From: Panorpa germanica
Taxonomy: Eukaryota > Arthropoda > Insecta > Mecoptera > Panorpidae
NCBI GenBank assembly: GCA_963678705.1
Contig: OY783208.1
Location: 16,737,782-16,801,781, forward strand
DNA: 64,000 nt
Reading direction: 5' to 3'
Part shown: positions 4,417 through 47,440 of the stretch, in pieces
Numbering within the stretch: the stretch's first letter is position 1
How the letters are laid out: every line of letters starts with the position of its first letter
The notes under the pieces: generated by a model
The model's database searches: none
What the model was told of the DNA's origin: nothing
Seen by the model: only the letters and a program-made list of their open reading frames with translations
Translations under genes and position numbers: made by a program

Positions 4417-4441
4417 TTTAAAACAGCAGTGACCAGAGTTT

Positions 4442-7287: not shown

Positions 7288-10200
7288 ATGAAGGTGTTAA
7301 TCCTTGCCATCTTCATCGTAATTTGTGCCTCAAGGACCAATGACATGGTGAGTTTTCTACGTTAATTTGTTTGCTTTGACATTATTAGTCCTTCTATTCA
7401 GCACCGGCTATCTAGGTTCGACGTGAACTTCCTGGGGACTTTCCTTTGATATGATTGTGCCTATGTCTTAATTTCTATAAAAGTGTACTATATATTAATA
7501 AGGTGGGTTACTAGAACCTCAAATGTTCAATTATTTTTTATTAACTCCTTATATGTTTAGAGATATTAACAATTAAAAAAGTCATTTTGTATCTTTAATT
7601 ATTAAAGGGATTTAACGTTGTACACATTCTGAATGCATGTGACATCACAACCTCTGCCAACCTTACACCTCATTAATCTCTGCTTTATGTATTTATATAT
7701 CAAAATATCAAATATTATTTACAGCGATTTCAAGGAACAATAAAATTTCAACATTATGCCTGCCTTAGCAGGGTTATATAAAATAAAAACTTATTATTCT
7801 TTGACTTTACTTGATTATTTCGACTACCAATAGCTACAAAACATTACCACAGCACTGACCTACTCAACAAATAACTGACGTTAAAATGCCTTTCATGTCA
7901 TACAAATATGGCCGACCATTTCTAGCGCTAAAACTACAATTCAGTTTTTTAATTGCTATATATTCGTCAATATTTAGATATTTATTAAAATAGGCACGCC
8001 AATACACATTTTTTTTTTTTTATATTTATTTACTTCTTTGCCTTGACTTTCGTCATACCCACCATCAAATAATTTTTTAACATCTTTTATCCTTTATAAT
8101 TTAATTTTACACATTTCTAAATATTTAATAAAATAGACACGCCAATACACATTTATTAACATCAATTACAATCAACAATTGATAAATCGAACACTAAAAA
8201 ATTAGTGCACAAGCCCATTAAGGAGGACTGCTTGGTGCACTATTTCTTATTTTTGTAAGTAATTATTTAGTTGCATAGCTTTATCTTTATCTAGTAGCGA
8301 CCCTCCACGGCAGATGTCAGCTGGTTGGTGACCAGCATCTGATTTATTCAATATTTTGAAATTTGTTTGTTGTAAACATCAATTTGGTTTGAAATTTTTG
8401 TAAAATTCTAAAATTGACCGAAATATTACTATTTGGATTTGAAAATTGACCTTTTGCCCATTATTATGCACATTATTTTGTGACTGCTGACGTCATTCTG
8501 TTGCTTAACAGAGATGGAAATATATTTAAATGGTAGAGGCATGTTGAAGTTCTATAAAACAGTAGTATATTTTTATAACGTTTAACGTTGTCCAGTTATT
8601 TTTAAATAAGTCGCAGTATGACAAGAGAAAGTACCATTTCTGTCAATTTTTGGATATATTGAAACAAGTAAGATAAGGCAATTGACATATAGCCTAAATG
8701 TTACTATAAATTCAAAAGATTTGACCACAAAAACCGTCTTGGTCTTTTAGTCGGCAACCGTTAGTTGGTATCCTTCCGAGTACACAACCACTGAGTACAC
8801 CACCGTTGCAACTACAACCTCTGAGATGACAACCACTAAGTATATCACCGTTGCGACTACAACCACTGAGTATTCAACCACAGATACGACGACGACTGAG
8901 TACACCACCGTTCCGACTACAACCCCTGAGAAGACAACCACTGAGTATACAACCACAGATACGACGACAACTGAGTACACCACCGCTGCGACTACAACCT
9001 CTGAGAAGACAACCACCGATTATACAACCACAGATACGACGACGACTGAGTACACCACCGCTCCGACTACAACCTCTGAGTCGACAACCACTGATTATAA
9101 AACCACAGATACGACGACCACTGAGTACACCACCGTTCCGACTACAACCTCTGAGAAGACGACCACCGATTATACAACCACAGATACGACGACGACTGAG
9201 TACACCACCGCTGCGACTACAACCTCTGAGTCGACAACCACCGAGTTAGGTTATTAAGTTGTTATCTATTTTGTTATTTTCTTCGCTTGTTTGCCACTTT
9301 ATTTCATTTGTCTATTCCGCAGGTAATTTTCCTCTTAACCGAGCTACTTCCTTTATACCCTGCCTCCTTTCAACAACTCCTCTCTCTCTCTCCTTTTTGT
9401 CTCTGCACAATCTGCTGTACGATCCTTCACCGTCTTCCCTATATCTCTTTTCTTTCTCCTTATTTTCTTGTCCTGGCTATGTCTTGTTATTTGGTTGTTT
9501 TATTTTTGTCGTCTCTTCCTACTGATGTACCTTTACATTCCTCTTCATGGTATACTTACAAGACAAATAAGTAAAAAATATTTACAATTTAAAAACCTGG
9601 TGGCTTATAATACTTCACGTCATTCGTACCTTTTAAAACTATTGACTTGGTTCCCTCCTAGAAGTTTCTTAGCCGTTTTGGTAATGTCTATTCGTGCTAC
9701 TAAATTTAAAATTTATAAAAGTATATTCAGCTGAGATAAACTCAGCTATAAGGTATTTTGTGAATAATATCAACATTGAAAATCTAAACTAGTGCAACTT
9801 TGCTCTTCAGATTCCATTCCGGACCTTCACGTTTACGGAGCGTGCACTGATATTAATGATATCCTTCCTGGAGTCTACCTAATTCAGGCCAACAACGACG
9901 TTGAGCCCTTTGAAGTTTATTGTGACATCGTGGATGGCAAAAAGTGGACGGTAACTACTCTGACGTCATTTCGTTTTAAGACATTACTTACTTGTTGCTA
10001 GATTTTATGTGACCGCTTTTTGTTAAAGTGAAAATCTTAAAGATTAGTTTTAGTAACACTTCTAGGATCTACTTACCCAGGTGTTCTAAAGGTTTATTTA
10101 ATGAATATAAATGGTCTTTAATCTAGCAATGAATTACACTTGATAATCATAAAATATAAATATTACCTTGAAAAATTTAAGCAAATGATAAGATTTTTGT

Positions 10201-13200
10201 GTTAATTAAACCTTGCATACATATAACAGTTTTTAGCTCAGTTATTTCCGCTGTGGTAAACTTTAATTCTAAGGAAAACATTTTCAGATAACTTCAAGAT
10301 TAATTTCATAAAAAAAAATAAACTCATTTTGTAGGTCATCCAGCGACGGTTCAACGACTCGGTTGACTTTTACAGAAACTATGCTAACTACACGATGGGA
10401 TTTGGGCCGATAGCTAGCAACCATTGGCTGGGATTGGAGAAGACCTACCAGGTGTGGTCTTGTTTTGTTCTTATCTTTATGTCATGACTTTGTTTATAAT
10501 GTGCCATTGAGTAATACCAACTGCACCGAACTAAAATCATAATCATCTGCTGTTAAATGAAACAAGAAATATGATCACAGTGTAACTGTTACTTTTAGTT
10601 GACGAAAAATGGCGACCATGAACTTCGGGTGGAGTTGGAAGCCTACAACTTAGCGAAAGCACACGCGCAGTACAGTACGTTTAAACTTGATTCGGCGGAA
10701 TCTGGATTCAAATTAACGATCTCCGGTTACAAAGGAAACGCAGGTAGGTCCAATGTTTATGCCACACGCAAGACTTCCTCGACAAGACAATGTTCTCTTG
10801 AGTCACGTGGCCTACACATTCGTTTAACATTCGAGGGATGTTTGGTCAGATGCATCGATCTTCTGTATTGTGACACTGGACACTTTTAAGGCCCTAAAAC
10901 CAACCTAGGTCCAACGTTGTTAGAAGTATCATAGATACAGCGCCAGATTAAGCGATGGAACTGCATGACCACGAGACAAAACTTAATTGTATAAAACTTA
11001 ATAATAATTTACTGATGTGGCACTAATAATCCTCAACAATTTCAAAAATGTCTTCTTTTTCAAGTAAGCCATTATTTTTGCATTCGGTGGTCAGGATAGC
11101 ATTGAGCGCAATCAACAAACAATAATAATAAGGAGAAGAACATTAGACGTCGTATTAACGCTGTGTACCTCTTATTGTAAAAATGTAATACATACGTTAA
11201 AATGAACGGGCCTAGTAGACCATTGGCATCCATTATCTCAATCCGGAACTGCATAGATACTAGGAAATCATCAGTGAAATAAAAGTGTAAAAACCGCACT
11301 ACGACAAAACTAAGGGATGTTCTATAAAAAATGGGTTGAAAACAAAAAATTTTAGCGTCTGGTAAGTCATTGTATAGATATTACCGGCGGCGTTGATTCC
11401 GTGATAGAATACCGGGATTCCGCTTGATTTCTAGTCCCGTAAATCCCGGGATTCCTTAATAAAACAAAATCAATATCCTTGAATTCTCCAATATTATCCT
11501 TATATTTCCTCAAATCAGATATTTAATAATTATTGCGAAAATCCTAGAAAATGCATAATTCATTTTGTGTCAATAAGCTCAATGTTTGATCAATTAATAT
11601 TACTTTGTGCAGTTGCATTTAGTTGCTGTCACACATTTGTTGCAACGAGGTAAAGACTGTCTTTATAAAATCAGTCACTTTTAAATTACAACTCTTACAG
11701 AAAGCATCACGTTGCAATTGTTGCAAATATTGGACAGTAGTGTTGTAGCTGGGACATGGTGTAAGTGGCGTGTCATTTATATTATGTAAATATAAAAGTA
11801 ATGGGCCTCTTAGACATTCAACTTAGTTGAAAACAGGTTGAAACCAGGGATGAAGAGATTTTTGACATTTGGTGGGTAGACCTGATGTCGGTGATTAGCC
11901 GTGTCGATAGAAATAAATCCATTTCGTTAAAAATTAGAAGTTTTTAGATCAAAGAATAAAGCTAGCATTATGATATCGATATGTGCTGTTCATTTTATGT
12001 ATTGTGACACGTACCAGAGTTAAATCAGGTCGGGCTTTCTTGGAGGGCGCTTATATGGAAAACAAATAACAACGACTAGGAAATGAAAGTTAAATGCAAT
12101 TGCCATTGTTTCTTCTTTTACATTTCTATTAATTTGCTAAATAATTGACCGATTTGTTATTTGATAATAAATTGATTTTAAAATATTATTTTTGACATAA
12201 TATAGTTTTATGCTCTTGAAAATATGATCTTCTATGGATGTAATTGTTATATGGAGTAACGCAAAAAAACATTAAACTTAACTGCTGAAATGCTATATAA
12301 CTAATCACGGGATTGACTCTTTCAAATGCCGAAATCCCGGAAACGTGAATATGTATGGCGATTGTTTCCTTAATTGTAGTCGACTCCAGCCGTACGAGAC
12401 ATGAAGAGCGCAAATTACGTAATTCCAAAGGACTGAGATATCTGGTGATAAGTTTAAAGGGCCACGTTGTGAGCTAAGTCTTAATAAGTTGGAATATTCT
12501 TGGAGACATTAACAATTAAAACAGTTCTTTTTGTCCCTTTAATCGTTTAAGGAATCAACATTTATAAAAAATGTCTAATTCAATGACGTGACGTCAATTT
12601 CATAACCCCTTCCCTTCTATGAACTAATGTCACTCTTAAGCAACGGAGTCTTAGGGAGATAGCATACTCAAATGTAAGGTAATACTCACAGCTGTCTGGA
12701 GCAAAGCATGAAGATTTGATGTAATCAAAAAATAAAAATTTAAATTAGTTGACGTTGAAAACAACAGAAAGTTTTATGTTTCTCCGTTGTCCATTGGTTG
12801 TAACATAATCCCTCTCCGTCTCCCCATAACGTGGAGAACGCGTTAACAACGGTTGTTGTTGTGTTTGTCTGTACCGCAGTGTTCTTGGTATTGTTTCAGG
12901 CCACTCAATGGACAGCAGCAACGGAATGAAGTTCTCTACGTTTGATAAGGATCAGGACATGACGACGACTAACTGTGCTAAATTTTACCATGGGGCCTGG
13001 TGGTACAATCATTGTTCGGTCAGGTAACTATCCACTTGTGTCTGCGTCACGTGATGCGTGATGTGACGGTCCTCTGGAGTGTAAGGTTGCCACCTCATCG
13101 GATGCCCGGACCTAGACACATTATCTCCAGGCCACGGGTTTACTTATTCCTACTTCGGATCATTGAGTTCTCTCACAAGACACACAATTATTCGTTTCCA

Positions 13201-14023
13201 TGTTACAAAATTTTCTCCCCGGCTGTTCAGGAATATGAATTCAGGTTTTGAATATGAATTAAATATTTAAACTTTTATCAAATTTCAACAATTTTTTTAA
13301 TTGAATTAAGGTAGTTGTGCCGCGGCTCTAATTTCTATAGTTGTCCTACTCTTTCTAATAGACGTCCTATATTTAAGTTAACTTTTTTACGTTAATGTAA
13401 TGTTAGATTAAATAAAGAAACAAATTCGTTTGACATAAATTTACGTTGTTTTACGTAAATAAACCTTTTTATGCAAGATTATAAAATGTTACATATTAAA
13501 GTAATATATTAGTAAAAGATTTTATGTGTATTTTAATTTATTTAATGACAGTGTAATAACATTTATTAAATTTATTAAATATGATATATTTATATTAGGT
13601 AATATATTTTAGTTAGGTAAAGTATTAGACTAAATTATACATAAATTTACGTTTTTTGTTCATCGGGTGATTTAATGCAGTTTTATTAGATAAAATAAAA
13701 ATATGCAGCAACCCAATGAAAGTCCCATCGCTCTGTTGCAGATTTAGATTTTTGTAATTTATGATTTTCAGTGAATTGACTAAAATATATTTCTGTGCAG
13801 AGTTCATGGCATCATTCAGTTGTTGTCAGTTAGTAACTCTGATCCATTTATGTTCACCCTCTGTTTTTGTGTTTGTACTATTCTAACGTTGTGTTTTACT
13901 TGCAGCAATTTGAACGGTCGGTATTTCAATATGGCTAAGCATGATTTTGAGTCAATGCACTGGGCTGACTTCTTGAGCTGGTACTCCTTAAAAACAGCGC
14001 GGATGATGATCAGAAGAAAATGA
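7288..14023 (+). CDS. Secreted mucin-like fibrinogen-related protein (400 aa, 7 exons)
   Basis: Predicted secreted lectin-like protein. Coding exons: 7288-7347, 8751-9249, 9811-9950, 10335-10451, 10599-10743, 12900-13023, 13906-14023; all junctions are GT-AG and the frame holds. Residues 1-20 (MKVLILAIFIVICAS..) are a signal peptide. Residues 21-186 are Thr-rich 25-residue repeats, likely O-glycosylated. Residues 187-400 are a complete fibrinogen C-terminal domain, including GVYLIQ, VIQRRFNDSVDF, HWLGLE, the calcium-site stretch DKDQD (336-340), NCA, GAWWY and SNLNG. The family binds sugars or acetyl groups in immune recognition, or acts in clotting; the role here is inferred. The paralogue at 32081-47440 shares promoter, signal exon and FReD exons but has a protease-like middle. 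Confidence 0.82.
7456..8218 (+). mobile_element. MITE with a LINE inserted in it
   Basis: GGGCTTGTGTCC-family element in intron 1 of the mucin-FReD gene. It runs from cctatgtcttaatttctat to gcacaagcccat, followed by TA. A LINE tail at 8009-8132 interrupts it, and MITE sequence (aataggcacgccaatacaca) occurs on both sides of the insert, as expected of a long target duplication. Confidence 0.7.
8009..8132 (-). mobile_element. LINE 3' tail
   Basis: Poly-T at 8009-8021 followed by tatatttatttacttctttg and gccttgactttcgtca, matching the 3' ends of the RNase H LINE copies at 31145 and 46082. Severely 5' truncated. Confidence 0.65.
8826..9240 (+). repeat. 75-bp coding tandem repeat (Thr-rich)
   Basis: About five units of 75 bp, each encoding 25 residues of the type EYTTAATTTSEKTTTDYTTT plus DTTTT. 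Units differ by a few bases (VP, AA, AP; SEK or SES). The array lies in exon 2 of the mucin-FReD gene and keeps frame. Such arrays vary in copy number between individuals. Confidence 0.85.
9260..9560 (-). mobile_element. LINE fragment, purine-rich on minus strand
   Basis: Pyrimidine-rich on plus, so purine-rich on minus, resembling the R1-like LINE tails elsewhere in the window. It sits in intron 2 of the mucin-FReD gene. The open frames here are compositional and I do not call them genes. Confidence 0.35.
12470..12590 (+). repeat. Degenerate MITE fragment
   Basis: Carries diverged family blocks (ggagacattaacaattaaaa, ttgtccctttaatcg, aaggaatcaaca) in an intron of the mucin-FReD gene. No terminal repeat remains. 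Confidence 0.4.
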
Positions 14024-23430: not shown

Positions 23431-23745
23431 ATAATATTTTTTATAATTGTTTCCGCAATTATACTAATTTATGTTAATATTTTTTTAGAACAACATCTTT
23501 TTTTGAACGAGAGGAAATTTTGAAAAGGAGAAGTAAAGAGCTGAAACAGTTAGATAGCAGTCTGTTCAATCAGAGAGACTACCTTCCTGTTACAACTGCG
23601 GTGTCTGAGCCCCATCGGAAATTTCCTGTGAGTTACTGTTTTCGCTAACAATTTTTCCTTGTCAGAATCCTATTTTTCGGAGAGTCGTTTATTGGTACAA
23701 AATAATCTTTAGTCTGTATATTATATATAACTTTAATTAAGTACA

Positions 23746-32080: not shown

Positions 32081-35000
32081 TTAATTATATTTCGCTTTAT
32101 AAGTTACACGCTGTTTATTTCTTCTAATCAACATACGAGTAGTTTTTAAGGAGAAGAGGTCAAAGTTGCTATACCAGTACATTGTTGCATAACCATAGAC
32201 AGATGTGTTGTGGTACAGGCCGTTCAAATTGCTGTAAGTAAAACACAACATTAGAATAGTACCAACACAAAAACATAGCGTGAACATAAATGGATAAGGG
32301 TTACCAACATCCTGGACATAGAGATAGCATTTAAAACTAAGAGCTAAAAATGTCAAGTTGCTTGATTAAAGTAATAAAGTCAGTTATACCTAAACCACAG
32401 TAAATTCGAAATGTGTCTACAGCACGACATCTTCACAAGAAAAGAAATACCAGCGGCCGTACGACAAGGATCGCTACCAATCCAATCTCTTTACAATTAT
32501 TATAATAAGGACATTTTTTAGACAGATTACGCTCATTTAACATTATTCGTCTACGACACAGGATTATACACCATTGCTAAATTAGACTTTACCGTCACCA
32601 CTACTACAATAAATGGAAGAAAAAACAAACACGACGAAAACGGCAACCCATTTTCTGTACTAGCTTACACGCCGCACATACAGAACGTCATCTGTGAGGA
32701 AATAAGGTCATTGGAGCACTGTATTGCCTATTAAGAAAAGGCAGTTGACTTTGTACACAAAATAAAAATATAATATACTAAGTAATTATAAAACCCACAG
32801 ACGGAGTACAAGTCTGCGGCAATACATGCTGTAACCATCACACGCCACTGCCTTGCAGCGATATTATATATTGATTGGGCTTGTGTACCTCACTTTTTAG
32901 TGGTCGATTTTTCATTTGTTGATTGAAATTAATGTTAATAAATGTGTATTGGCGTGTCTATTTTATTAAATATCTGAATGTTGACGGAGATATAGCAATT
33001 AAAAGTTTGAATTGTAGTTTTAGGGCTAGAAATGGTCGGCCATATTTGTATGACGTAAAATGCATTTTAACGTCAGTTATTTGTTGAGTAGGTCAGTGCT
33101 GTGGTAATGTTCTGTAGCTGTTGGTAGTCAAATAATCAAGTCAAGTCAAAGAATAATAAGTTTTTATTATTTTTAACCCTGTTACAGCAGTCATAATATT
33201 GAAATTTTATTCTTCCTTGAAATAGATGTAAATAATATTTGATATTTTGATATATAAATAAATAAACAGAGATTAAGAGCTATAAGGTTGGTAACCTTAC
33301 ACAAGGATTGTGATGTCATATGCACTTGGATTGTGTACAACGTTGAATCCCTTTAATAATGAAAGAGACAACATGACTTTTTTAATTGTTAATATCTCTT
33401 AACATATAAGGAGTTATTAACAAATAATTGAACATTTGAGGTTCTAGTAACCAACTTTATCAATATATAGTACACTTTTATAGAAATTAAGACATAGGAC
33501 ACAAGCCCATTCACTCTATTTCATAAATTACAAAAAATTGTAGAGAGGAGACAAGGAAGGCAAGAGGTTATAGATGAAGATACAGGCAATAAGGAAGGAA
33601 AAGCAGGAAACGGTGTAAATAAAGGAGGAGTAGGGGATACAAAGAGAGGATCAAGAAAAGAAGAAACAGAAAGTACTATTCGAAGTAGTAATAGTCTAGA
33701 ATAGTTTAAGTTTAGTTTTAACTTTGAATTTATATGAAATGCATTAAGAAATATAATAATGTAGATTGTAAAGGCGAAAGGCACACAATTAATATAATAA
33801 ATAAATAAATATAATCTTATTCGCCGTAGAGAAAATGTTGTAACATGGAAATAAATAATGGTGTGCTTTGTGGCAGAACTCGCAGACCCGGAGAAGGAAT
33901 GAATAAACTCGTGTCCTTGAGATAATATGCCTAGGCCTGCGGTAAGGAGGCAACTCTACACTTTAGATGACCGTCACATCGCGTAATACGTGACGCAGAC
34001 GCAGGATGAGATAGTTACCTGTACGCACAAGCTTTGTACCACCAGGCTCCGTGGTGGTCCACAGCACAGTTATGTGGCGCCTCGTCCTGATCGTTATCGT
34101 ACGTAGAGAATTTGATTCCGTTCAAGTTGTAGTAGGTCATTGAGTCGCCTGAAACAATAACAAGAACAATGCGGTAAAAAAAAACAACAACCATCTATTG
34201 CTAAGACATTCAAGACGAAATTAGGCGACGGGAACAAAACATAAAACTTCCTGTTGTTTTCAACGTCAAATAATTTAAATTTTCTACAAAAGTAAAACAC
34301 AACGTGTTCCCTACTTCATGCCCTAGTACAGGGTAGGCGAACCAATGGCACGCGTGCCATTGATGGCACGCGACACAATATTTTGGGCACGTCGCCGATC
34401 ATAAAACATGTGTAAAAAATGTGTTAAGTAATAGGTATTTTGTAGTATTTAAGTAGGATCGAACTGCATCATTCACCAACAAGCCTTGTGTTCTAAGAGT
34501 GGTTTAATATCCCTTGATAATATAATGGCGGTAGTTACAAAAATAGTCAACCTCATCTCGTCACAGGCTTTAAACAAGCGAAAGTTCGATGCTTTGTTGG
34601 ATGAAATCAACTCGGTGTATAATGGCTTACTGATGTATAATAATGTTCGTTGGTTGAGTCGCGGGAATGTACTTGAAAGATTTGTTGATTGCTTGGAAGA
34701 AATCAGACTGTTTTTGCAAAATGAGGGAAAAATTGAACAATACGTGGGTATTGTTGGACGTTATGTGGCTTTCAAAATTGATGTTTTTTACAGACATATG
34801 CCAACATTTAAATACATTAAACGTAAAGCTTCAAGGGACAAACAAAACAATTATTGTCATGATAGATCTCATTAGCGCTTTTGAGGCTAAACTGCAAGTT
34901 TTCAGAAACGATATTATCACAAGAAACTACAAGTATTTTCCAAACTTGAAAAAATATATCAATGATTTTGATATTCACGAGACAGCAGACAAAGAAAAAT

Positions 35001-38000
35001 TTACTGAAGAATTTATTTCTGTGATCGATTCTTTAATCAAGGAATTTTCAGGGGGATTTTCTCTGTTCAAAGAATTGTCGGAAATACTCAAATTTATTAT
35101 GTGCCCTGATGTGGCGTCATTTCATAAACTGAACTTCTCTCAATTCGATTGGTTGGAAATTGAAGAATTTGAAATGCAGTTGATTGATTAAGCTCAATAT
35201 GGATTCAAAAATTTATTGAAACAAGGAAAGAGTTGGAATTAATTGAAACTGAAAGATTGACAAGTAATTTAAGTAAAAACGCTAATAACAAAATTCTGGA
35301 AACATGGAATGCGTTACCAGACACATTTAACTGTTTGAAGAAGCTGGATCATGCTATTTTAACAATGTTTTCATCTACCTATGCCTGTGAGTCATTATTT
35401 TTAGAGATGAATAACATTAAAAACTCGGTTAGAAACCGTTTGACAGATGAATCCAGTTCAGCATGCATTTTGCTAAAAGTAACATCTTACAACCCTAACA
35501 TAAATTATTTGTCATCTAACCTGCAGCAACAGAAGTCACACTAATTTTACAGTAATTTAATTTATGCATGTAATAAAAATATTCCAAAATGTACCTCTTT
35601 TGTTTACTTTATTTAATAAAGAGTTTTGATAGATAGTATTTATTATTATTATTTTCCAAATAATCAGAAAGTCAAAATTATTTGATGGCACGTCAATGAC
35701 CTCATTCGACATTTTTCAGAAAAAATGGCACGTTGATGCATAAAGGTTCGCCTACCCTGCCCTAGTACATAAAATCATTACAGGAAGTTTCGCGTGTTGA
35801 ATAAACATTAGACCTACCTGCGTATCCTGTGTATCCAGAGATAAATAATTTATATCCGGTTTGGGCAGAGTCAACTTTAAACGAACTGTACAGCGCATAT
35901 GCTTTAGTTAAGTTGTAGGATCTCACTTCGACGTAGAGTTCATGTTCGTCATTCTTCGTCAACTGAAAGTAACAGATAAACAGGTGATATTTCCTTTTAC
36001 AGTTAATGGAAAATAGAGAAGATTACGAGTTGAGTTCTGTGTGGTTGAACTAGGAGAGTGGTTCGTTAAACAAATAAGTAACGGAGGGAATACCAAAATG
36101 GAAAAGAAAGAGGATGGCATTACGAAGAAAGAGGGTTAGGGCAGCGGGGATAGTAAGACCAAGAGAGAAAGGGGTGGAGGTACAGTTGCAAAAACAGGAT
36201 AGAATGAAAAGGATGCATGAAGCAAACTATAATACTAGATACAGTTATTTAAGGTCGAAAAGCATGTTTAAATACCTAGAAAAGCAGAGAGGTAAAGAAA
36301 GGAAAATGACCGCGAGGTTTAGAGTACGGTATAAAGAAAGGTTAAGTAGATACGGGGCTGGGGAGGAAGAGAAACTAATTAGATTGTGTGGTAAGAAAGG
36401 TACCAGTCCGACACACGACGACACGACGCTGAATTTTGAAAACGGCATTTTGAACGACATTTCATGGCAGGAGTGTGTCTAGGAAACGTCTAGTGAATAC
36501 GACGTAAATTACCAGGCACCTAATAAGCTGCCTGGTAACACTGATCCGACATCGGATTCGGTAGAAATCTACACTATTCTATATAAAAATCTAATCTTTT
36601 TTTAAATATTGAATGATATTGAACATAAAACATATGAAAATACAGTAATTTTGTACAAGTTAAAAAAAAGTGGTCTAGCTAATTATATAATTGCCTATAA
36701 TTCTTTTTAATATAAGAGTCCTTCATTTATTTATTGCAAATACGAATTATCTTTTAATATTTTATATTTAGCATATTTAATACTTTGACTTTAAAAAATT
36801 ATAGGTTAGGATTATTTGACAAGAGTAACAAAGGATTATAATAATGTAGTTATTTGACAGTTTTGATGACGTGCTTCTTTAGGTAATTGCTGCTCACCAT
36901 CAAGAATACCTAAGATGAATAACATTGAGATCTTGTATTCATCCATTTTAAATAGCTTTAGATTTTCGAAGAAAATAGTTAAGATGATAATCGCAACACT
37001 GAAGCCGCACGCGCCAAAACAAATTAGAAGATCTGCTGTATCTTTTAATAGCAAGGTTAGAAGTTATATTGATAGAAGATATGTTTTTATAATATAATTA
37101 TACGATTGTATTAGGTTTCTGTGTTTTTAATTGTTATTCTGATGTTTTAGTTCTTTGCCGCTCTACAGTTCTTCGCATGAGGGTTATCAACAAGTTGTAG
37201 GAGGAAAATACAATGTATCACTTTCACAGATGATCATTAGTAAAAGTATACATCCAGTCTGTGATTTGACAATGAAATACTTGATGCCTAAATACATCCG
37301 ATTCCCACAAACTATAAATGAAAATAATAATATCAAAGCTGTGTAGTATTATATGAAAACACCGATATCTATATCTTATATATTTTTATGTATAAACCTG
37401 TCATTGCATATTTTACAATAAATACAACATGCAGGGAGCAATAGGTGGTACAAATTGTACACATATACGAATAGTGAACCAAAAATCTTTGATCCTGTAT
37501 ATCCTCCACCCTACCCATATACATACATATGAATAGATGGAGTTATTATAGTATAAATGTTGAAGTGTTAAATAAAACAAAATGTACTTGTATTACTCTG
37601 ATGAGTGTTGTTGAATTATGTTATTTTGTTAATATTATTAGTTTGTATCATATATTTCCAATTTCCAAATTATGAATTATACGTACACAATTATTATAGT
37701 ATAATAAATAAGTTGCAATACATATTGTATTTATTTTCCTGTAACTCTAGGTGTCTAATTGTTATTTTCACATTTTATCATTAAATCAATTTTAATACAA
37801 ACGTTTGTACTGTTTAATACAAGTATATGTTTATTTACTAATTAACAAAAATTTAATTTAAAAATAACTTTTTTTGGTTAATATTTTAAATTTCTGTTGG
37901 TAACTGTAGCTATGTTTACAACCAATCCAATTTAACGTCTGGTAGTTACCAAACACTTCCGACGGGGCTTTCACAATACATAAATTGATGGCACGGCACC

Positions 38001-41000
38001 AGACCGTCCTAAAACAGCCCCGTCGGATACAAATACGAACACGACGCCTGGTCTCTACCCGACGAAGTTGTAAAATAAGCGCCTAAGAGTAGGTGTCGTG
38101 AGAAGTTGAAAAGTGAAAAAGAAGAGAACAAAATGGATGAATAAAATTAGGAGTGAGAGAAGGAAAATAAAGAGCAAGGAAGATGATGCTAGACATGTAG
38201 TTCTAAGAAAGTAAAAATGTAATCAGTAAAAGTAGAAGCATGTAATGCTAAGGGCACAGATGTTCAAGTAATACAATACAGAATAAACAAGACAGACAAG
38301 AAGAATTAAATAATTTAGAAACGATAATGAATAGAAGGCAAACAGTTATTTAAAAGAAATAGAAAGAAGTGTTCGCAGAATGTGTAAACGAGAAAGAAAT
38401 ATCTTTGAAATATATGAAAGAGGAATGCATTTAAAGATTGAAAGAAAATAGAAAAGAGAACACTTTTGGAGAAAAGATAAGGATGTCAAGAGGTGGATGG
38501 TGTACATACATAATGGCAAGAAAGAACGAGAAAGAGTAAAGAGAGAGAGAAACAACGCGGGAAGGGAGCAAAAGAAGATATAAGGACAAGAGTATAAGTA
38601 TCAAAATGTTTCTATTGCATTATTAAAATGTACAACAGTTTTAAGATTAATTTAGTAATGAGATGTAATTACGTCATTTACACTGAAAGAATGTAAGGGC
38701 TAACAACAAACACATTAAATTAATAAATTCAAAACAATGCAATAATAGATGATTATGAGTTTAGTTCAGTATGGTTGGATTACTGAATGACACTATTACA
38801 ATGGGCTTGTGTCCTCACTTTTTAGTGGTCGATTTTACAATTGTTTATTGAACTTGATGTTAATAAATGTATTGGCATTTCTATTTTATTGAATATCTAA
38901 ATATTGACGGAGATTAGAGCTGCAGATGTCGGCCATATTTATGACGATTGTAGTGGCATAGGTCAGTTATTTGTTGATTCGTTCAGTACTGTGGAAATGT
39001 TTTGTAGCTGTTGGTAGTCCTGTGTATCTAGTACGCACGCGTTAGTTAGCAAAGAATAATAAGTTCTCATTTTATTTAACGCGGTTGCGGCAGTTACATT
39101 GAAACTTTATTGTTTTAATTTATAGATTGCAATAGCATGAACAATAGCATAAATAAAAATAGCAAAGATTTATAAACTATAAACTTGTCAGAGTTCTATC
39201 AGTAATATGCTATCTCCTTTTAGCTCTGTTGTATAAAAGAGATAGCAACATAGCAAAAGTGAGGTAACATGTTCTGACCTGTTCTACAACGTTGAATTCC
39301 AGTGAATATGTCTCCTAACATATAAAAAGTTATTAAAAAATAATTAGACATTTGGGGTTATAATAACCACTTTATCAATAAATAATAGACTTTGTTACAA
39401 AAATAAGACATAGGACACTTAAAGTCATGACTTAAGGATAAGGTAAAATCCTGACTTTACCTGGTGAATCTTCTCTAATCCCAGCCAATGGTTGCCAGTC
39501 AACGGCCCAAATCCGTCGGTGTAGTTAGTATAGTTCCTGTAAAAGTCAACGGACTCGTTAAAGCGCTGCTGGATGACCTGCAAAATGGTTTTATAAAATT
39601 TCAGTAAAATAGATCTTGAAGTTATCTAAGATGATTTCCTTAGAATAAAAATTTTAAGTAGCCGAAATAACCCGCAAAACAGAGAATTACTTATTACATA
39701 TAAGGTTTATTTAACATAAAAATATTTACTTTAGACTTCAAAGATAAACCAGCTGTTAAGTCGACTCATAATGTTTCAATATAATGTCGTGATGTAAAAC
39801 GAAATATAAATAACATTATTTATGTAATCCGCGGGACTTCATTACACGGATTTATTCCAATTTCTTGTTCAATGTGGTTCATCAAATTTGTTAATAGTAG
39901 ACATAAGCATAAAATAAGCGAGATCTATTATTCAAGTTAGCAAGTGGACACCCCTAACAACTTGCATAATGAACTCGTCCTAATCTTAAGAATCACATGT
40001 GCTAATGAGATGGCACTACTAATTATGTAAGGCAGAGTGAGAGGCATAATTGCACCATAAGTGCACCCTAAAGAATCGGATTCTGAGAATCAACATATGA
40101 GTTTTTTTGAGCGCAGGACACATGAGATGGCGATATAGCGTCTCTTGCTGATTCACTCATACTTATTAGGAACGATATATGTTGCCAAATTAGATTTTAG
40201 CGGGAGGTTAATTGGTTTTCTCAACGAAGATAGAAGCTTGTCGATTCTTAGGTACTGAATACTAGAGTAGCGCGCGGCTTCCTCCCACGTTTTCTTATTA
40301 GACCAATTAGCGATTGTTTGTTATACCAACAATTTCGATTCGCGACAATTATATAGTTAGTGCCAGCTCGTTGATCTGTAATCAATAGTTCCTTACAAAA
40401 TTGCATGTAGTGTTATGTCTAATTAGTTGGTTCCAGTTTCGCACTTTTCAAAGAGCTGAACTGTACGAGGCTCTGCTGCAGTTGGAACATTTGTCGTAAT
40501 TGAGTAACAGTTAATGTAACCGATTCATGAAAAATATGAAGTTAACAATATGAAGTAAAACAAATAAATAAGTAATATTTAACTGTTACAAAATAATGTT
40601 GTTCAAAGCAAGTACAATTGTTATTTGGACGCAACCGAATATTTTAACAATAACTTGATATTCCAATGCTCAAATATTAAATAATAGCACATATTAACAC
40701 ATATTTAAGATTTACCTAACATGAAAAAAGTTATTATTTGTGTAAAATATATGAGATGCAATCCACATATTGTGTTTAGCGAGATGTAATACATTGCTAG
40801 ATTAAAGTCCATTTGGATAAGTTGATCCGACCAGTGCTAGAAAAAACTATTATTTCAGACTTACACCTCGGCAAAAGGCAACCAGATGAAATTAAGCAAC
40901 AAATAACTCAACAGTTCACCAACAACTGCATTCTGAAGGTTATGCCGTGCATGTGTGGAGGAAAAGTTTTAGGAACAAATGTAGTTAGAGTAAATACCGT

Positions 41001-44000
41001 CCACTTCTCGCCATCCCCGCTGAGTTCGCAAAAAACTTCAAAAGGCTTCACATTGTCGTTCGGCTGAATTAAGTAAACTCCAGAAAGGGTACCAGAAATA
41101 CCACTGCACGCTTTATAAACCCTGGAGCTTGGAGCACAATCTGAAGACAAGGTTGCAGGTGTTTAGATTTGCAATGTTGACAGTCAAAAAAATAAATTGG
41201 TAATGGCAAAAATCAAAAATTTGAAGCACTAGTGAACAACAATAGAGCGGTTAAGGACCTTCTGAAAGCAATTTCAGGTAGAGCAAGAGTGAGTGGGAGA
41301 CGTAGAGGAAGATGGAAAAAGCAAAAAAGAAGAAAGCCTTAACATAAATGCGAATAACAAACTGAAAGAAAACGGGAAAAAGAAAAGGAGGGCAAGGCTG
41401 TACAGGGTATAGCGCTTTAATGATACATAGTTTGATAAAATTTAAAATTTACCTCCATTATCAAATCAAGATTTAAAATCTAGCTACAGTAACATATGTA
41501 AATAATATTTGACGTAATCATCGTTTAAGTGTGCCATCTCTTTTGCACTCAATTGTATACCAAAGATCACAAGAGATTAGAAAATTATAGGTTAAAAGAC
41601 GTAGATATGAGGATGAGAGAAGTAAAAAGCGTAACAGTAGTCGTAAAAATAAGTTTAGGTACATCAGAGGGAGATGGCAATATAGAACAAGCCATACAAG
41701 AGGAAATGGGAAAGAACATATAAGGTATGAAGAAACGAGAAGAAAAGAGACAAGGAAGAAAGGAGATGGATGGCAGAGCTGATATAGAGATTGTTAGGGA
41801 TCGGGTTATAACAGCAGCAATTACAATAGCCTTGGGATCTTCTTAATCAAGGAAATACAGTTTGGTTTGTCAGTGAAAAGAAGGTAGAGGAGCTAAGAAA
41901 GCAAGAAGATGAATGACGAAGATAAAAAGAAGAAGGAAGATGAGAACGAGGAAAAGAGGGAGAATCATGGAGGTTAGAAAGGTTAAGTAGAGGAATAGAG
42001 GACAGAAATCTGATACCAAAAGAATAAGGGAGATATGTCATTCGCTTAAGTTTATCAGGAATAGTTTTAAGTCAATTTATTGAAATGTAATTAACGATAT
42101 AATATGGAAAAATGTAAAACTTAGCGGCATGCATTAAAAATAAATATACAAAGAAAGAAATATATTAGCTTATTTAAGGATAGACACTAATACTAAGACA
42201 AAAAAAAATAGCTAGTGTAGAAGGAAGATCCAGCAGGTTGTTTAAGTGGGAAGAGAAGACGCAAACGAAAAGGATATAGACGATTTGTTTAAAGGAGGAT
42301 GCGGATGATGAAAGGGGACAAAACAATTGAATTGAGAAACATACGAAAGGGAATTGCATTTACGTGACAACAACAGCTTGTTGTTCTGTCGTTAGATTTT
42401 TTGTCTCATTTACATTACGGTTATACTCGTGTGCAATGCATAGAGTTGTATAATGGACAATCTATTTGTAAAGAAGATTATAATGCCGCGGCTTGTGCAA
42501 AATCAATTAAAATATACACCTACAATTTATATAAAGAAAAATATCTGTGACATCCAAAATGCGGTTAAAAATTAAGTGGTAAAATTGAAATCTAATTTTT
42601 ATATTTCCATTACCAATTATACATTTGAAAAATTAAAAAACCAAATGACGGATTTCGACCATAACGATGTCGAATAACCTGAGGGTGAATCTGATCTAGC
42701 TGTCTGAATAAATATTTAATTAATATACAAAAGTAAGTTGTATCTAACCTGCAGTTAAGGTATCATCGATCCACTGTTGGTGTTTGTAGAGGTTGGTGAA
42801 TATACCTTCATGGTGGCTGCAATGAGAAAAGCACCGCTCAGTCATTATCCCCACTAAAGCACCATTAATGATTAAACCACCTCCGGTATGCATCTAGAAG
42901 AAGGAAAACATTACAACAGACATCTAAAGATTTATATATATGAATTTAATATTTAATTTTTAAAAAATGTTCTTAAGTAGTTTTATAAGTGTTTTAAAGG
43001 TATATAAAGCTATTACATAGCGTATTTCAGGACGTTGTATATCAGATAACATCGTTTATGCAACAGGCACTGGCGTAGCTAGGTATGGGCGAGTCGGTGC
43101 AGTACACTGGGGCCCCCAAGCCCAGGGGGCCCTCGGACTTTTATAACTTATATTTATATTTTAACGGTTTCACCGTGAAGTAATACTCTTAGTAAATAGT
43201 TATTCCCGACAATGCATACAAAACTTTTATAACAAAAACATAAACAATAACAAACATTCTAAATAGGAATGAATTTTTTTTATTGAGAGTGTATTTCATA
43301 CTCACTTATGTACAAATTTATCGCTGAACATGAGGGAGGCGGGAAGCATGGACTAGGCAAGGGTCTAAGTCTATTACATAATTCTCTCATCCAGAGGTAC
43401 GCATTCTAGAGTTGTTGAAACAAAAGTAGCTGCAGGATTGTACTTAGAGTCTTAGAGCGTAATATCGCTAACAATATACAGAAAAGGCTGATGTTTATTT
43501 CCTTTGGTCTACTATTAAAACATCATAATAATTGATCTGGATAAGATAGAAGCAGTGACATAAATGCACATAATTTGGTGCAAAATAGTATACCCGCTAG
43601 TGAAGAAAGTAGGATATTCCAGTCCGCGTGTTTGCCATCCTTGCCTTCAGATAGGGGTAAGTTTTACACGCCGGTTGAAATGTCTTACTTTCTTCCCTCG
43701 GTGTGTAATATACTATTAATGTTTTATGTAAAATAAATGTTTTACATACATACAGGCATACATCTTTTGATTTACTTCGTTTTATTGATTAATACCAATA
43801 ATATAAATCCAAGTATACATTCCTAAACTCTATACCTAGGCGATCACTAAAGCTCACACAAGACACACATACACATACATGTAGTAAGTTATAGTTTTGC
43901 TGTACCATTTAAAGCTTTGTACCTTTAAAGTATTTATATATATTTATATCTGACTTGAAAAATCTAAACAGTTTAGTTGGGGGCCCAGATTTTTTTTTTT

Positions 44001-47000
44001 GCTCCGGAGCCCTTGGTTACCTAGCTACGCCACTGGTAACAGGTAACCTTTTCTTATCTGAAACACCCCGTAACTGTGTTTAGCGGGTATTAAAAAGCCT
44101 TTAGAGGCGTGGTCTTTGCAACCGAGCGATGATGTGGCTTTAGAAGAGTTAGTCTAAGACTATAACTCGGAGGAATTACAGCCTATAAAATCAGATAACA
44201 AATCCTATTGCAAAAATGCATTTTTCTAACATAGATTAACTAAAGATAATCATAAAGTAACTTGGACACTTACAAAACAAAAGTAGTCAACTGAGACACA
44301 GCAAAAGAATTCCGAGTCCCAGGCTGCATCTTCATAATGTGATGTACCCTGCGTCTCTCGACAGTGGCATGGTCCTTTAAATATCATCATCTGCTTAGTG
44401 AAGGCCATAGTTTCTGAAGTAATGAATGCTTCTATTAATTTGCAGTTAACAACTTTTAACCCTGCTTCTAAGGGTCTTCTTAATATTCTTGTCTTAGTAA
44501 ACCAGTTAACCTACCGTAGCCAACTTGTCCCCATGCTGCGAATGTGATGTTATCCTTAGTGATTGGTATAGAGCCTCTTTTCAGGTAAACGGGCATAATT
44601 GATTCTGCAACAATCAGCACAATGAATCAGGATCATCAGGAGTTTGGTGAAATACAGGATCTGATGATCTTACCTGACCTTACCGATCTGGACAATTTAA
44701 TCAAAGCCACATCGTTCTTAGGTTTTCTATAAAGTGGAAGATACTCAGGATGGATGTAGACAAAATCGGAATACACAACGACTCTGTCCGGATCTTCTTC
44801 ATCGAACGGAACGAGGGCCCCGAGGGTGACCTTAACCTTTGCGTCACTAGAAAATAAGTTACTATAGTAGTGAATTGTTGCCAACCTAAAGAAATAACAA
44901 ATCAGACATTTCACTTACGGGAACGTGCAATAAGCGGAAGTGAGCACCCATCTATAATGAATTAGACTTCCGCTGCAATATTTCACTTGAAAGTCTCTCT
45001 TGCTTTTTAGAAAGGCAACATGAGGGAATTGCCTTTTAGCTGCAGGAAGTCCGTATTTATACCCGCCTGTAAAAATAACAGTACGTTAACATCAGAGACG
45101 CATTGGGGGTCCTGTATAACCAGATAATCACTTACAAGTTTTTATCTCTTGAATGGGGTCATAGTCATGTGTTCTCAGCAGAGAAGGAAGCGACAGGATT
45201 GAGGTAGTCTCAGTGGATGCTGACTGAAAAACGAAGACACTTTCTTGTGGTCGGATCATTTGAATTTATAGCTACACATAGACTAATATATGTGTGTTGG
45301 TCTTTTATTGTCCGTACATTGGCGGACATATTATTTTAAATTTGAATTTTTGTTTCATGGTTCGTTAAGAACAGGAATAAATTTGAAGTTCTGTAAAACC
45401 AGGTAATCACTTATAAAAGTTTGCCTCGTCAACGGAATAATCATCTGATGCACTCGTCAGTACCGGTCGATAAATTAGTCGACAATGTCGTAGATTCTGT
45501 TTTCTGACTTGCAGCAAGGGGATCAATATTGATAAGTGAATAGTTTTAATTAGTTACTAGAGAGTGTAATTTCATAATTTGTTTTACCTGAAGATGACTT
45601 CGCATGGAGAGTTGAAAGGTGTTAGTATTTATTTTTATTAAAGTTACGTTTTCTATGATAAAAGGGTTGTTTTATTGAACATGTACCTAGTAATTGTAAG
45701 ACTGAAAAATGCAAAGCCAAAATTACGATAGTTCGGCGTTGACGTATGGCTAGGGAATCCCTGAATTAAGATTTGATCGATATTTTAGACTTCGATTTTA
45801 TTTTTAATCGATTCTTTAGACTTCGATTTGAATCGATTATTAAATCGATCCTTTTTAAGAAGAATCGCCAGCCCTAATTTGAGATCCTGTTAGCCACCTT
45901 TATCAATATATTGTACAGTTTTATAGCAATTAAGTCATAGTTCACAAGTGAATATTTGAGGTCCTGATAGATACCTTTATAAATATACGATTATTGTGCA
46001 ATTTTATAGAAAGTATAACATGCCTCTTAAATACATTGCCATCTGTTTTATACTACAGGGTGCTACTGAGATAGCACATATTTATTTCTTTTATATTTAT
46101 TTACTTATTTGCCTTAACTTTCTTTCATCATAGCCACCATCAAACATTTTTTATACATCTTTTATAATTTATAATTAAATTTTACAAATTTTTAAATATT
46201 TCAATAATTCACTAATTAATTTTGAATCACTTAACAAAAATTTAGTATTAACAGGAAAAGTTTTAATCACATCTAATATATCACTATTCAATTTTGATCT
46301 TTCTAAACTATAATTTATGCATTCAAATATAATGATCCAAAGTTCCTTCTTCACCACATTGACATCTATCGTCAGATTTAATAATAATTTTGTACAGGTG
46401 AGCTGGAGTTTTGCAATGATTACTTTTGATTCTGATTATAGTTGATATAATTTTGTTGGACTCATTTTTAAACCATCTCTTCTTAATTAAATTTGGATGC
46501 AACATATAATAACCTCTTCCTTTTAACTGACTTTTGTTAATGAAATCTGTGTTTCTCAAATTGAAGTTTAATTTTTTGATTATATTAAAAATTTCATATG
46601 AAAGTAATTTCACTTTCATATCAATTTCTAAATTTATTGATTCCTTTGCCAATTTATCCGCAATTTCGTTTCCTCTTATTCCACAATGTCCTGGTATCCA
46701 CATAAATTTTATGGTATTATTCTTATTTATTATATTGAAATACATCTCCTTAATTTTGCATGTCAAAATAACACTATTTTATTTGTTATCAGTAGAATTT
46801 AAAATTTTTAAAACACTTAAAGAATCCGTTATTATATAATTTTATTATTGTTGATATTTTCATTAATTTCCAACTTTAATAATGCTTATTTTCTCCAGTA
46901 TAAGAGCAAACTTTGTTATTTAATTTAAATGTATAATATCTTAAATGTATTTGTTCGTATACTGAATGCATCTGTATATATTATTTTTGTAAAATGTGTT

Positions 47001-47440
47001 AGCACATATTAATACTTTCATACGTATTATATATAACAAGGAAATAGTGACGAAAATTATCACAATATGGCGGCGAAAAATTAAATCGTAAAATGTTAAA
47101 TTTTAAATAACTATATTTTGATTTCCAAAATTGCACATGTTATCGAAGTTTATAACAATAAGTCTTTAAAATATTGAATGAAGCACAACCCAACAGGTGA
47201 CATCTGCCGTGGATGGTCACTACTACATGAATATAACGGCTATTTACCTAAAATTATCTAAAAATATAAGAAATGCAGCGCACCAAGCAACACTCCTCAG
47301 GTGAAGAGATTTTCTCAAAGTCCACAGTGCTGGATAATGCTAATAATGTCAAAACAAGAAAATAAAAGTTAAAAACTTACCGGAGCATAGAAGATTGAGG
47401 CAAACGATAAGATGAAGACGACAACAACCAACATCTTCAT
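32081..47440 (-). CDS. Serine protease homologue-fibrinogen fusion protein (527 aa, 12 exons)
   Basis: Exons in transcript order: 47440-47381, 45223-45136, 45066-44919, 44846-44674, 44604-44515, 44467-44274, 42893-42749, 41140-40998, 39577-39461, 35962-35818, 34148-34019, 32231-32081. All are GT-AG and one frame runs through. Residues 1-20 are a signal peptide; 21-50 a linker; 51-299 an S1 serine protease fold (FPHVAFL, YCSGSLI, HPEY, NDVALIKL, AAWGQ, GIFTNLY, WI). His57 is Tyr (TSAYC, residue 95), Ser195 is Thr (MHTGGG, 254), Asp102 is kept (144), and the IVGG start is missing, so it is probably a pseudoprotease. Residues 300-527 are a full FReD with DNDQD (452-456), NCA, GAWWY and SNLNG. 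A TAG follows six bases beyond exon 7's donor, so a protease-only form is an alternative. Poly(A) signal near 31967-31972. Confidence 0.75.
32440..32750 (+). mobile_element. Jockey-like LINE RT relic
   Basis: Conceptual pieces such as EIPAAVRQGSLPIQSLYNYY and LFVYDTGLYTIA resemble the VPQGS..LF and YADDTA segments of LINE reverse transcriptase. Short and broken. It lies in the last intron of the fusion gene. Confidence 0.4.
32876..33510 (-). mobile_element. MITE (GGGCTTGTGTCC family), near complete
   Basis: Terminal repeats gggcttgtgt and ggacacaagccc bound about 635 bp, with the family interior in reverse order. No clear target duplication. It lies in the last intron of the fusion gene. Confidence 0.82.
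33520..33810 (+). mobile_element. LINE 3' tail, purine-rich
   Basis: Purine-rich run followed by aatgtagattgtaaaggcga and an ATA/AATA tail, as in the other R1-like LINE fragments here. Confidence 0.45.
34329..35759 (+). mobile_element. hAT DNA transposon with transposase remnant
   Basis: Perfect 15-bp terminal inverted repeats (CAGGGTAGGCGAACC) and a perfect 8-bp target duplication CCCTAGTA (34321-34328 and 35760-35767) define it. Subterminal gtgccat motifs recur at both ends. Inside, frames at 34486-35544 encode the C-terminal part of a transposase of the GTF2IRD2/ZBED5-like group (ALNKRKFDALLDEI, NNVRWLSRGNVLERF, and a dimerisation-like end, STYACESLFLEMNNIKNSVR). The N-terminal part is missing and the frame is interrupted at least twice, so the copy is inactive. 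It lies 51 bp from an exon of the fusion gene. Confidence 0.92.
36040..36500 (+). mobile_element. R1-like LINE C-terminal fragment
   Basis: An open stretch (36114-36482) reads RMHEANYNTRYSYLRSK, KYLEKQRGKE, MTARFRVRYKERLSRYGAGE and IRLCGKKG, the lysine/arginine-rich C-terminal tail of insect LINE ORF2 proteins. Only the tail is present. It lies in an intron of the fusion gene. Confidence 0.55.
36915..37346 (+). pseudogene. PIF/Harbinger transposase relic
   Basis: Reads FRFSKKIVKMIIATLKPH, then after a possible GT-AG intron (about 37056-37150) FFAALQFFA, then in another frame GYQQVVGGKYNVSLSQM and KYIRFPQTINE. This order and spacing match the N-terminal half of Harbinger transposases. A one-base shift and a stop near 37178 break it; the catalytic core is absent. 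Confidence 0.55.
38090..38730 (+). mobile_element. R1-like LINE 3' fragment
   Basis: Long purine-rich run followed by gaatgtaagggctaacaaca and an ATTAAATTAATAA tail, as in 6090-6720. No usable frame. Confidence 0.5.
38801..39418 (-). mobile_element. MITE (GGGCTTGTGTCC family)
   Basis: Starts ATGGGCTTGTGTCCTCAC and ends gacataggacac, with the outermost right bases lost. About 618 bp. The boundary is some 40 bp from the fusion-gene exon at 39461-39577. Confidence 0.78.
39829..40390 (+). repeat. Dispersed repeat, copy 3
   Basis: Starts taatccgcgggacttcatta and matches copies at 27504 and 15255, but has only one internal cttgtcgatt block. In an intron of the fusion gene. Confidence 0.55.
41220..42130 (+). 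mobile_element. LINE fragments, purine-rich
   Basis: Two purine-rich runs with short frames and a tail (aaaaatgtaaaacttagcgg) like the other R1-like LINE remains. The small open frames are compositional. In the intron between exons 7 and 8 of the fusion gene. Confidence 0.45.
42170..42360 (+). mobile_element. LINE fragment, purine-rich
   Basis: A further purine-rich piece of the same type as 41220-42130. Confidence 0.3.
42749..45223 (-). other. Serine protease homologue module, exons 2-7 of the fusion gene
   Basis: Six exons (88, 148, 173, 90, 194 and 145 nt) with internal phases 1, 2, 1, 1 and 0. The module starts in phase 0 and ends in phase 1 at CAG/GTTAGA. Around the lost catalytic Ser, Cys191 is kept but the specificity position 189 is Tyr and 193-194 are Met-His. 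Several extra cysteines (FFCCVSVDYFC, GPCHC) may give new disulfides. Gene 1 has a single Thr-rich exon in this slot, also phase 0 in and phase 1 out. Confidence 0.8.
43068..44035 (+). mobile_element. Non-autonomous hAT element (968 bp)
   Basis: Terminal inverted repeats CACTGGCGTAGCTAGGTA and its near-perfect reverse complement ending ctacgccactg, with an 8-bp target duplication gcaacagg/gtaacagg (7 of 8; 43060-43067 and 44036-44043). Subterminal gggggcccag-like blocks occur at both ends. No transposase. It sits in the intron that splits the S1 domain between exons 6 and 7. Confidence 0.85.
45880..46020 (-). repeat. Degenerate MITE end fragments
   Basis: Twice repeats the family left end in reverse (tgagatcctgttagccacct, tttatagcaattaagtcat, then a second ttgaggtcctgatagatacc). 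In an intron of the fusion gene. Confidence 0.4.
46082..46850 (-). mobile_element. I-superfamily LINE 3' fragment (RNase H)
   Basis: On minus: WIPGHCGIRGNEIADKLAKE (RNase H), then a CQCGEEGTLDH zinc-like tail, then the ORF end at 46175 (LKYLKICKI) and a short 3' UTR. 5' truncated; a frame break separates the tail from the RNase H. Closely related to 31145-31850. In intron 1 of the fusion gene. Confidence 0.8.

What the first reader, a model, noticed from the sequence alone, without database searches (positions are those of the whole stretch)
32081..47440. One-chain fusion of an inactive serine protease and a fibrinogen lectin-like domain
Seen: 12 exons with GT-AG borders keep one frame from signal peptide through an S1 fold into a full FReD. 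The S1-FReD junction joins G at the end of exon 7 with AT at the start of exon 8 to make Asp, exactly as in the paralogous gene. Known: vertebrate ficolins (FReD) work with MASPs (S1 proteases) as separate chains; insect pseudoproteases act as immune cofactors. Inference: a single polypeptide combining sensor and cofactor. I know of no described family with this order, but cannot search.
Basis: partly seen in the sequence, partly recalled or inferred. Interest (0 to 1): 0.92.

Follow-up and report, generated by a model that had tools for sequence, protein, structure and literature searches.

The report
Pseudo-protease fused to fibrinogen lectin domain
An animal gene (species not given) appears to encode one secreted protein that joins a dead trypsin-like enzyme to a fibrinogen-type recognition domain; protease-lectin fusions are known from mosquito immunity, but this pairing was not found described in the searches made here.

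Summary
A 12-exon minus-strand gene (47440-32081) with 11 GT-AG introns in consistent phase encodes 509 aa: leader, trypsin-like S1 domain (Pfam Trypsin 73.5 bits, profile 4-220 of 220) and FReD (Fibrinogen_C 190.5 bits). My first exon model was wrong at two S1 introns; correcting them raised the S1 score from 58.5 to 73.5 bits and removed an apparent frameshift. S1 cannot be an ordinary protease: His57 is Tyr, Ser195 is Thr, Gly193/Asp194 and the Ile16 activation end are replaced; Asp102 remains. A plus-strand paralogue (7288-14023) shares leader, start of exon 2 and FReD but has a Thr-rich repeat instead of S1. S1 exons 3-7 form a symmetric phase 1-1 cassette, as in exon shuffling. The FReD keeps both calcium aspartates but only 2 of 5 acetyl-pocket residues, so GlcNAc-type sensing is doubtful. 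Closest known design: mosquito CLSP1-3 (N-terminal S1, C-terminal C-type lectin). One-chain protease-lectins are therefore known; S1 plus FReD looks like a new variant. No transcript was available: S1-only and S1-skipped isoforms stay possible.

The parts
47381..47440 (-). exon 1, leader MKMLVVVVFILSFASIFYAP (signal-peptide-like)
   Evidence: homologous to paralogue exon 1 with its upstream sequence, 71% over 477 aligned bases. Signal peptide judged by eye, not predicted by a program.
45136..45223 (-). exon 2, short linker SASTETTS...EIKT, ends phase 1
   Evidence: its start and the end of intron 1 match the paralogue, 8690-8759
44919..45066 (-). exon 3, S1 domain: N-terminal part and position 57 (VLTSAYC, His to Tyr)
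44674..44846 (-). exon 4, S1 domain: Asp102 kept (NDVALIKL)
   Evidence: start moved from 44885
44515..44604 (-). exon 5, S1 domain (AAWGQVGY)
44274..44413 (-). exon 6, S1 domain (CHC, FFCC, YFC)
   Evidence: start moved from 44461
42749..42893 (-). exon 7, S1 domain: position 195 (MHTGGG, Ser to Thr) and C-terminal helix; phase 1 donor CAG|GTTAGA
   Evidence: alone it gives no Pfam hit (protein 6)
40998..41140 (-). exon 8, FReD
   Evidence: paralogue match
39461..39577 (-). exon 9, FReD
   Evidence: paralogue match
35818..35962 (-). exon 10, FReD
   Evidence: paralogue match
34019..34148 (-). exon 11, FReD: calcium aspartates DNDQD and disulfide
32081..32231 (-). exon 12, FReD end and stop TAA
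42744..42746 (-). in-frame TAG met if exon 7 is not spliced (S1-only rival)
42715..42720 (-). ATTAAA, 24 nt after that TAG: possible poly(A) signal of an S1-only isoform
   Evidence: about 0.26 such sites expected in any 60 nt
7288..14023 (+). paralogue, 7 exons, 400 aa: leader, Thr-rich repeat exon 8751-9249, FReD; no S1

Best explanation
A real gene for one secreted polypeptide: leader, catalytically dead S1 domain (a non-clip serine protease homologue), then a FReD. It arose from a FReD gene duplicate in which a symmetric phase 1-1 S1 cassette sits in front of the FReD, where the sister gene has a Thr-rich linker. Most likely way of working (inferred): the FReD binds a surface or a partner protein, and the dead S1 domain docks onto the proteases or prophenoloxidase machinery of the haemolymph, so that the chain steers or damps a protease cascade at the bound surface, in the manner reported for mosquito CLSP2. 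Shown: frame, domains, dead active site, paralogue, phases. Inferred: joint splicing, secretion, partners, immune role.
For: 12 exons, 11 GT-AG introns, consistent phases, no stop. Trypsin 73.5 bits over profile 4-220 of 220 and Fibrinogen_C 190.5 bits in one translation. Position 57 Tyr, 195 Thr, Asp102 kept in alignments to kallikrein-4 and Hypoderma collagenase. Leader exon and FReD homologous to the paralogue on either side of the S1 insert, so leader and FReD belong to one ancestral gene. Exon 7 donor scores 7.28, better than 98.7% of 7152 GT sites in the window, and lies in the right phase right at the S1 end; about 0.007 such in-phase donors expected in 27 nt (weight matrix from 16 introns of my own models, chosen after the fact). 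FReD dN/dS between the copies 0.47 (0.32-0.70), below 1. Neutral-decay simulation: once 30% of S1 residues had changed, only 2 of 400 runs had no stop; at 50%, 0 of 400 (indels not modelled, and exons were chosen to be open, so partly circular). No other leader-like exon in intron 1 by a crude scan.
Against: No transcript or protein data. S1-only reading ends naturally (TLTAG, stop TAG 42746-42744) with ATTAAA 24 nt downstream. Exons 3-7 can be skipped in frame, so the FReD could be expressed without S1. The exon 7 donor has the unusual GTT start; exons 6 and 8 have among the weakest acceptors, 3.85 and 3.58. Exon 7 alone and exons 5(end)-6-7 read through gave no Pfam hit. S1 is diverged, and no orthologue could be compared, so selection on S1 is not measured. 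At 10% neutral change 72 of 400 simulated runs had no stop, so recent loss is not excluded. Acetyl pocket 2 of 5 kept.
Confidence: 0.68

Rival explanations
1. Alternative transcripts instead of a fusion: leader + S1 ending at TAG 42746-42744 (a plain secreted serine protease homologue), and leader + FReD with exons 3-7 skipped. The two domains share a leader but not a chain.
For: All phases allow it; the skipped form reads through without a stop and the S1-only form has 282 aa in the frame; ATTAAA lies 24 nt after the TAG.
Against: Needs exon 7 to carry a good donor in the right phase at the S1 end by accident (about 0.007 expected in 27 nt). ATTAAA/AATAAA is common here (0.26 expected per 60 nt).
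Confidence: 0.18
2. Decaying S1 cassette: the S1 exons are remnants of a nested protease fragment inside a FReD gene, no longer translated.
For: Catalytic and activation residues lost; diverged; no S1 in the paralogue. My first reading of exons 5-6 looked frameshifted.
Against: The frameshift vanished with the 101-nt intron. No stop in 231 S1 codons; simulation (with its caveats). The S1 cassette has conserved splice sites and phase 1-1 ends.
Confidence: 0.1
3. An active or switchable protease with a Thr nucleophile, fused to a FReD.
For: Asp102 and Thr at 195 remain.
Against: Tyr at 57, His at 194, Met at 193 and no Ile16-type N-terminus (chymotrypsin numbering recalled).
Confidence: 0.02

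Closest known systems
CLSP1, CLSP2, CLSP3 (CTLD-SP family) of culicine mosquitoes (PMC4461313, PMC6070988; abstract/outline and passages seen)
   Same: Secreted single chain, N-terminal S1-type domain, C-terminal lectin domain, made by fusion of a protease and a lectin gene, with duplicated copies; CLSP2 modulates melanization and Toll responses and is cut into 33-kDa protease and 14-kDa lectin parts on fungal challenge.
   Different: Lectin is a C-type lectin, not a FReD; called elastase-like serine protease in those passages, whereas here the active site is replaced. Function here untested.
Fibrinogen-related proteins / FReD lectins (FIBCD1, ficolins, tachylectin-5A; PMC3908420 passages, PDB hits)
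   Same: Full Fibrinogen_C domain; calcium aspartates and the Cys401-Cys414-type disulfide kept.
   Different: An S1 domain in front in place of collagen, coiled coil or Thr-rich linker; acetyl pocket 2 of 5 kept.
Non-clip serine protease homologues of arthropods (recalled)
   Same: S1 fold with catalytic residues replaced.
   Different: Carries a C-terminal FReD; no clip domain found (Pfam gave only two families).
Ficolin-MASP complexes of vertebrates (recalled)
   Same: FReD and S1 functions brought together.
   Different: There on separate chains, with active protease; here one chain, dead protease.

Membership tests
S1 (trypsin-like) fold | Profile match over the whole domain | tested here: met
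   Trypsin 73.5 bits, positions 4-220 of 220
Active S1 protease | His57-Asp102-Ser195 triad and Ile16 N-terminus | tested here: not met
   Tyr, Asp, Thr; YKYGLPA in place of IVGG-type start (numbering recalled)
Serine protease homologue (SPH) | S1 fold with at least one catalytic residue replaced | tested here: met
   Two of three replaced
Clip-domain SPH | N-terminal clip domain | tested here: not met
   Only Trypsin and Fibrinogen_C found at E up to 1
FReD / FREP | Fibrinogen_C domain | tested here: met
   190.5 bits, profile 14-219 of 221
FReD / FREP | Calcium site (Asp393, Asp395 of FIBCD1) | tested here: met
   Both Asp in gene and paralogue (position counted from Cys401)
Acetyl-binding FReD lectin | Pocket Tyr405, His415, Tyr431, Ala432, Trp443 of FIBCD1 | tested here: not met
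   His, Ala, Tyr, Ala, Leu: 2 of 5 kept; paralogue Tyr, Ser, Phe, Glu, Trp: 2 of 5 kept
Ficolin | Collagen-like region before the FReD | tested here: not met
   No collagen match in Pfam scan; S1 there instead
CLSP / CTLD-SP | N-terminal S1 and C-terminal lectin domain in one secreted chain | tested here: met
   secretion only from a leader-like exon 1
CLSP / CTLD-SP | Lectin part is a C-type lectin domain | tested here: not met
   It is a FReD
CLSP / CTLD-SP | Cut into protease and lectin parts on immune challenge; modulates melanization | not testable with these tools
   needs protein or knock-down data

The most novel reading that the evidence does not exclude
One locus encodes a three-state immune regulator: a fused pseudoprotease-FReD adaptor, a FReD-only recogniser (exons 3-7 skipped in frame) and an S1-only protease homologue (stop in intron 7), chosen by splicing of a shuffled phase 1-1 S1 cassette; the fused form couples surface recognition to control of a protease cascade in one molecule.
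Probability: 0.15. Interest if true: 0.75.

Novelty: new variant of a known kind. Interest (0 to 1): 0.5.

Why it matters
If transcribed as one chain, it is a second, independent solution (besides mosquito CLSPs) for tying a recognition domain to a protease-type domain, here with a FReD and a dead enzyme. It would show that S1 cassettes are shuffled into FReD genes at a phase 1 intron, and would give a single-molecule system in which to test how pseudoproteases act at a recognised surface.

Tried and rejected
Frameshift between exons 5 and 6: I first read on through 44510 because LRRPLEAGLKVVNCK resembled the S1 stretch before Cys168. Of 74 in-frame introns found by enumeration I scored by Pfam the 32-nt one (44510-44479), the 53-nt, 101-nt and 224-nt ones, exon 6 left out, and the read-through with X: S1 alone 63.4, 61.7-61.8, 68.2, 58.1, 57.3 and 60.5 bits. 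The 101-nt intron also has the best of the 15 acceptors scored (4.86). Rejected: the frameshift and the 53-nt intron.

33-nt intron before exon 4: rejected for the S1 fit (68.2 to 76.0 bits on moving to the 72-nt intron) although its acceptor scores higher (11.22, against 4.47).

Relatives elsewhere: none in viral contigs (11 pattern matches, none confirmed) or genome contigs (17, none confirmed); both used my earlier 538-aa model and reach close relatives only; neither collection is eukaryotic. No genome is held for the window.

S1 traces near the paralogue: none with E below 1 outside the gene (earlier model); one hit at 5510-5611, E 1.3, with a stop, taken as chance.

Papers: ten searches, no S1 + FReD fusion seen in the listings; passages seen of PMC9334734, PMC12549020, PMC4840205, PMC12751051, PMC6070988, PMC3908420, and outline, abstract and passages of PMC4461313. 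Most subscription papers and all protein-architecture databases were out of reach, so the pairing may exist in databases.

Structure prediction was not tried: the tool takes proteins that the window's DNA gives letter for letter, and I did not want to test whether a spliced protein counts.
Full report
Observation. The minus strand from 47440 to 32081 holds 12 exons with 11 GT-AG introns; phases agree and the 1530-nt reading frame has no internal stop. The 509-aa product matches Pfam Trypsin (73.5 bits, residues 55-275, profile 4-220 of 220) and Fibrinogen_C (190.5 bits, residues 299-496). Against the PDB the S1 part matches 353 distinct sequences at E up to 0.001 (60 listed), best kallikrein-4 at 9e-14 and, among insect proteins listed, Hypoderma collagenase at 2.3e-12; the FReD matches 68, best MFAP4 at 9.2e-47. 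The S1-FReD codon is Asp, made from G 42749 and AT 41140, as in the paralogue.

Gene model. My first model gave Trypsin 58.5 bits in the full protein. It held two stretches foreign to S1: 13 residues from a 33-nt intron before exon 4, and 16 residues from a 53-nt intron before exon 6. Moving the acceptors to give 72- and 101-nt introns raised S1 alone to 76.0 bits. The acceptor evidence is mixed: better for exon 6 (4.86 against 1.11), worse for exon 4 (4.47, against 11.22). With the final model the weakest acceptors are those of exons 8 (3.58) and 6 (3.85), and the weakest donors are paralogue exon 2 (2.70) and gene exons 6 (3.71) and 8 (4.11). These matrices rest on 16 introns each time.

Active site. 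In the alignments VLTSAYC stands against VLSAAHC (His57 to Tyr), NDVALIKL against NDLMLIKL (Asp102 kept), CFMHTGGG against CNGDSGGP (Gly193, Asp194, Ser195 to Met, His, Thr). In one search GLPAAKRQFPH aligns from residue 4 of mature kallikrein-7, so Tyr-Lys-Tyr stands where Ile16-Val17-x is expected (numbering recalled). Cysteines lie at or beside positions 42, 58, 168, 182, 191 and 220, with two candidates each for 168 (CHC) and 182 (CC); this is my reading of the alignment.

Paralogue. On the plus strand 7288-14023 seven exons encode 400 aa: leader, a Thr-rich exon built of 75-base repeats (5.1 copies, 91% matches) and a FReD (189.1 bits), no S1. The two FReDs are 59% identical over 216 aligned residues; dN/dS is 0.47, bootstrap 0.32-0.70, over 214 codons. 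DNA similarity runs through the region before and in exon 1, into the start of exon 2 (8690-8759 with 45285-45215), stops, and resumes about 40 bases before the first FReD exon (9770 with 41180). So the S1 exons, and the Thr-rich exon, sit at the same place of an otherwise shared gene. The genes are convergent, 18 kb apart. Whether S1 was gained here or lost there cannot be told from one window.

Is S1 part of the chain? Exons 3-7 begin and end in phase 1, so they can be included or skipped without loss of frame. The S1 part has no leader of its own by a crude scan of intron 1 (intron 2 of 69 nt not scanned). Exon 7 ends with a donor better than 98.7% of the window's 7152 GT sites, in the needed phase, exactly at the end of the S1 domain; about 0.007 such donors would be expected in 27 nt. 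Against this, reading on gives a stop after two bases of the intron (TAG 42746-42744) and ATTAAA 24 nt later, the shape of a natural S1 3' end; such hexamers are frequent here (560 sites on both strands, 0.26 per 60 nt).

Is S1 still under constraint? No orthologue was available. In a neutral simulation of the 231 S1 codons, runs without a stop were 72 of 400 at 10% changed residues, 19 of 400 at 20%, 2 of 400 at 30%, 0 of 400 at 50% and 0 of 400 at 70%. Since the exons were picked as open frames, and indels were left out, this is supporting, not decisive.

FReD ligand. FIBCD1 binds calcium through Asp393 and Asp395 and N-acetyl groups through Tyr405, His415, Tyr431, Trp443 and Ala432 (PMC3908420, passages). 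By alignment (positions counted from Cys401) the gene keeps both Asp and the disulfide, but has His, Ala, Tyr, Leu, Ala in the pocket (2 of 5 kept); the paralogue has Tyr, Ser, Phe, Trp, Glu in the same order (2 of 5 kept). The fold and calcium site are kept; acetyl-sugar binding is doubtful.

What it works like. Mosquito CLSP1-3 join an N-terminal serine protease and a C-terminal C-type lectin; CLSP2 is cut on fungal challenge and damps Toll and melanization responses (PMC4461313: outline, abstract and passages; PMC6070988: passages). A shrimp FReD lectin raises phenoloxidase activity through its coiled coil, not through its FReD (PMC12751051, passages), which shows that the N-terminal partner of a FReD can carry the signal. 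By analogy the dead S1 domain here would be the signalling or docking arm. This is inference.

Verdict. The architecture is real in the sequence and the gene model is sound; the fusion as a transcript is likely but unproven; the immune reading is plausible. It is a new variant of the known protease-lectin kind as far as ten paper searches could tell; no protein database could be searched.

Noticed in passing
34315-35773 (intron 10): hAT-like transposon insertion: 29-nt arms 83% complementary, an 8-base TACTAGGG repeat at both flanks, and transposase-like open frames 34453-35541 on the plus strand (the one frame scanned, 34453-34872, had no Pfam hit).
   Followed up: partly
43068-44035 (intron 6): About 1-kb insertion with 18-nt terminal inverted repeats (CACTGGCGTAGCTAGGTA), 94% complementary.
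   Followed up: partly
8751-9249: Thr-rich mucin-like exon of the paralogue, 75-base tandem repeat, 5.1 copies: leader + mucin-like linker + FReD.
   Followed up: partly
147-1079 (+), 3493-4458 (-), 18952-19647 (-): Several C2H2 zinc-finger open frames (Pfam zf-C2H2).
   Followed up: no
23737-26283 (+) and 61829-63998 (+): Retroelement gag/protease frames (DUF1759 and RVP; zinc knuckle and Asp_protease_2). Ten of 31 long open frames were scanned; seven had a family at E up to 0.001.
   Followed up: no
33504-32937, 30519-30001, 7455-8014 and further copies: A repeat of about 550 bases present in several copies, 89-90% alike.
   Followed up: no
15330-15909 and 40382-39939: A 71-76% similar stretch shared by the DNA downstream of the paralogue and intron 8 of the gene, unidentified.
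   Followed up: no
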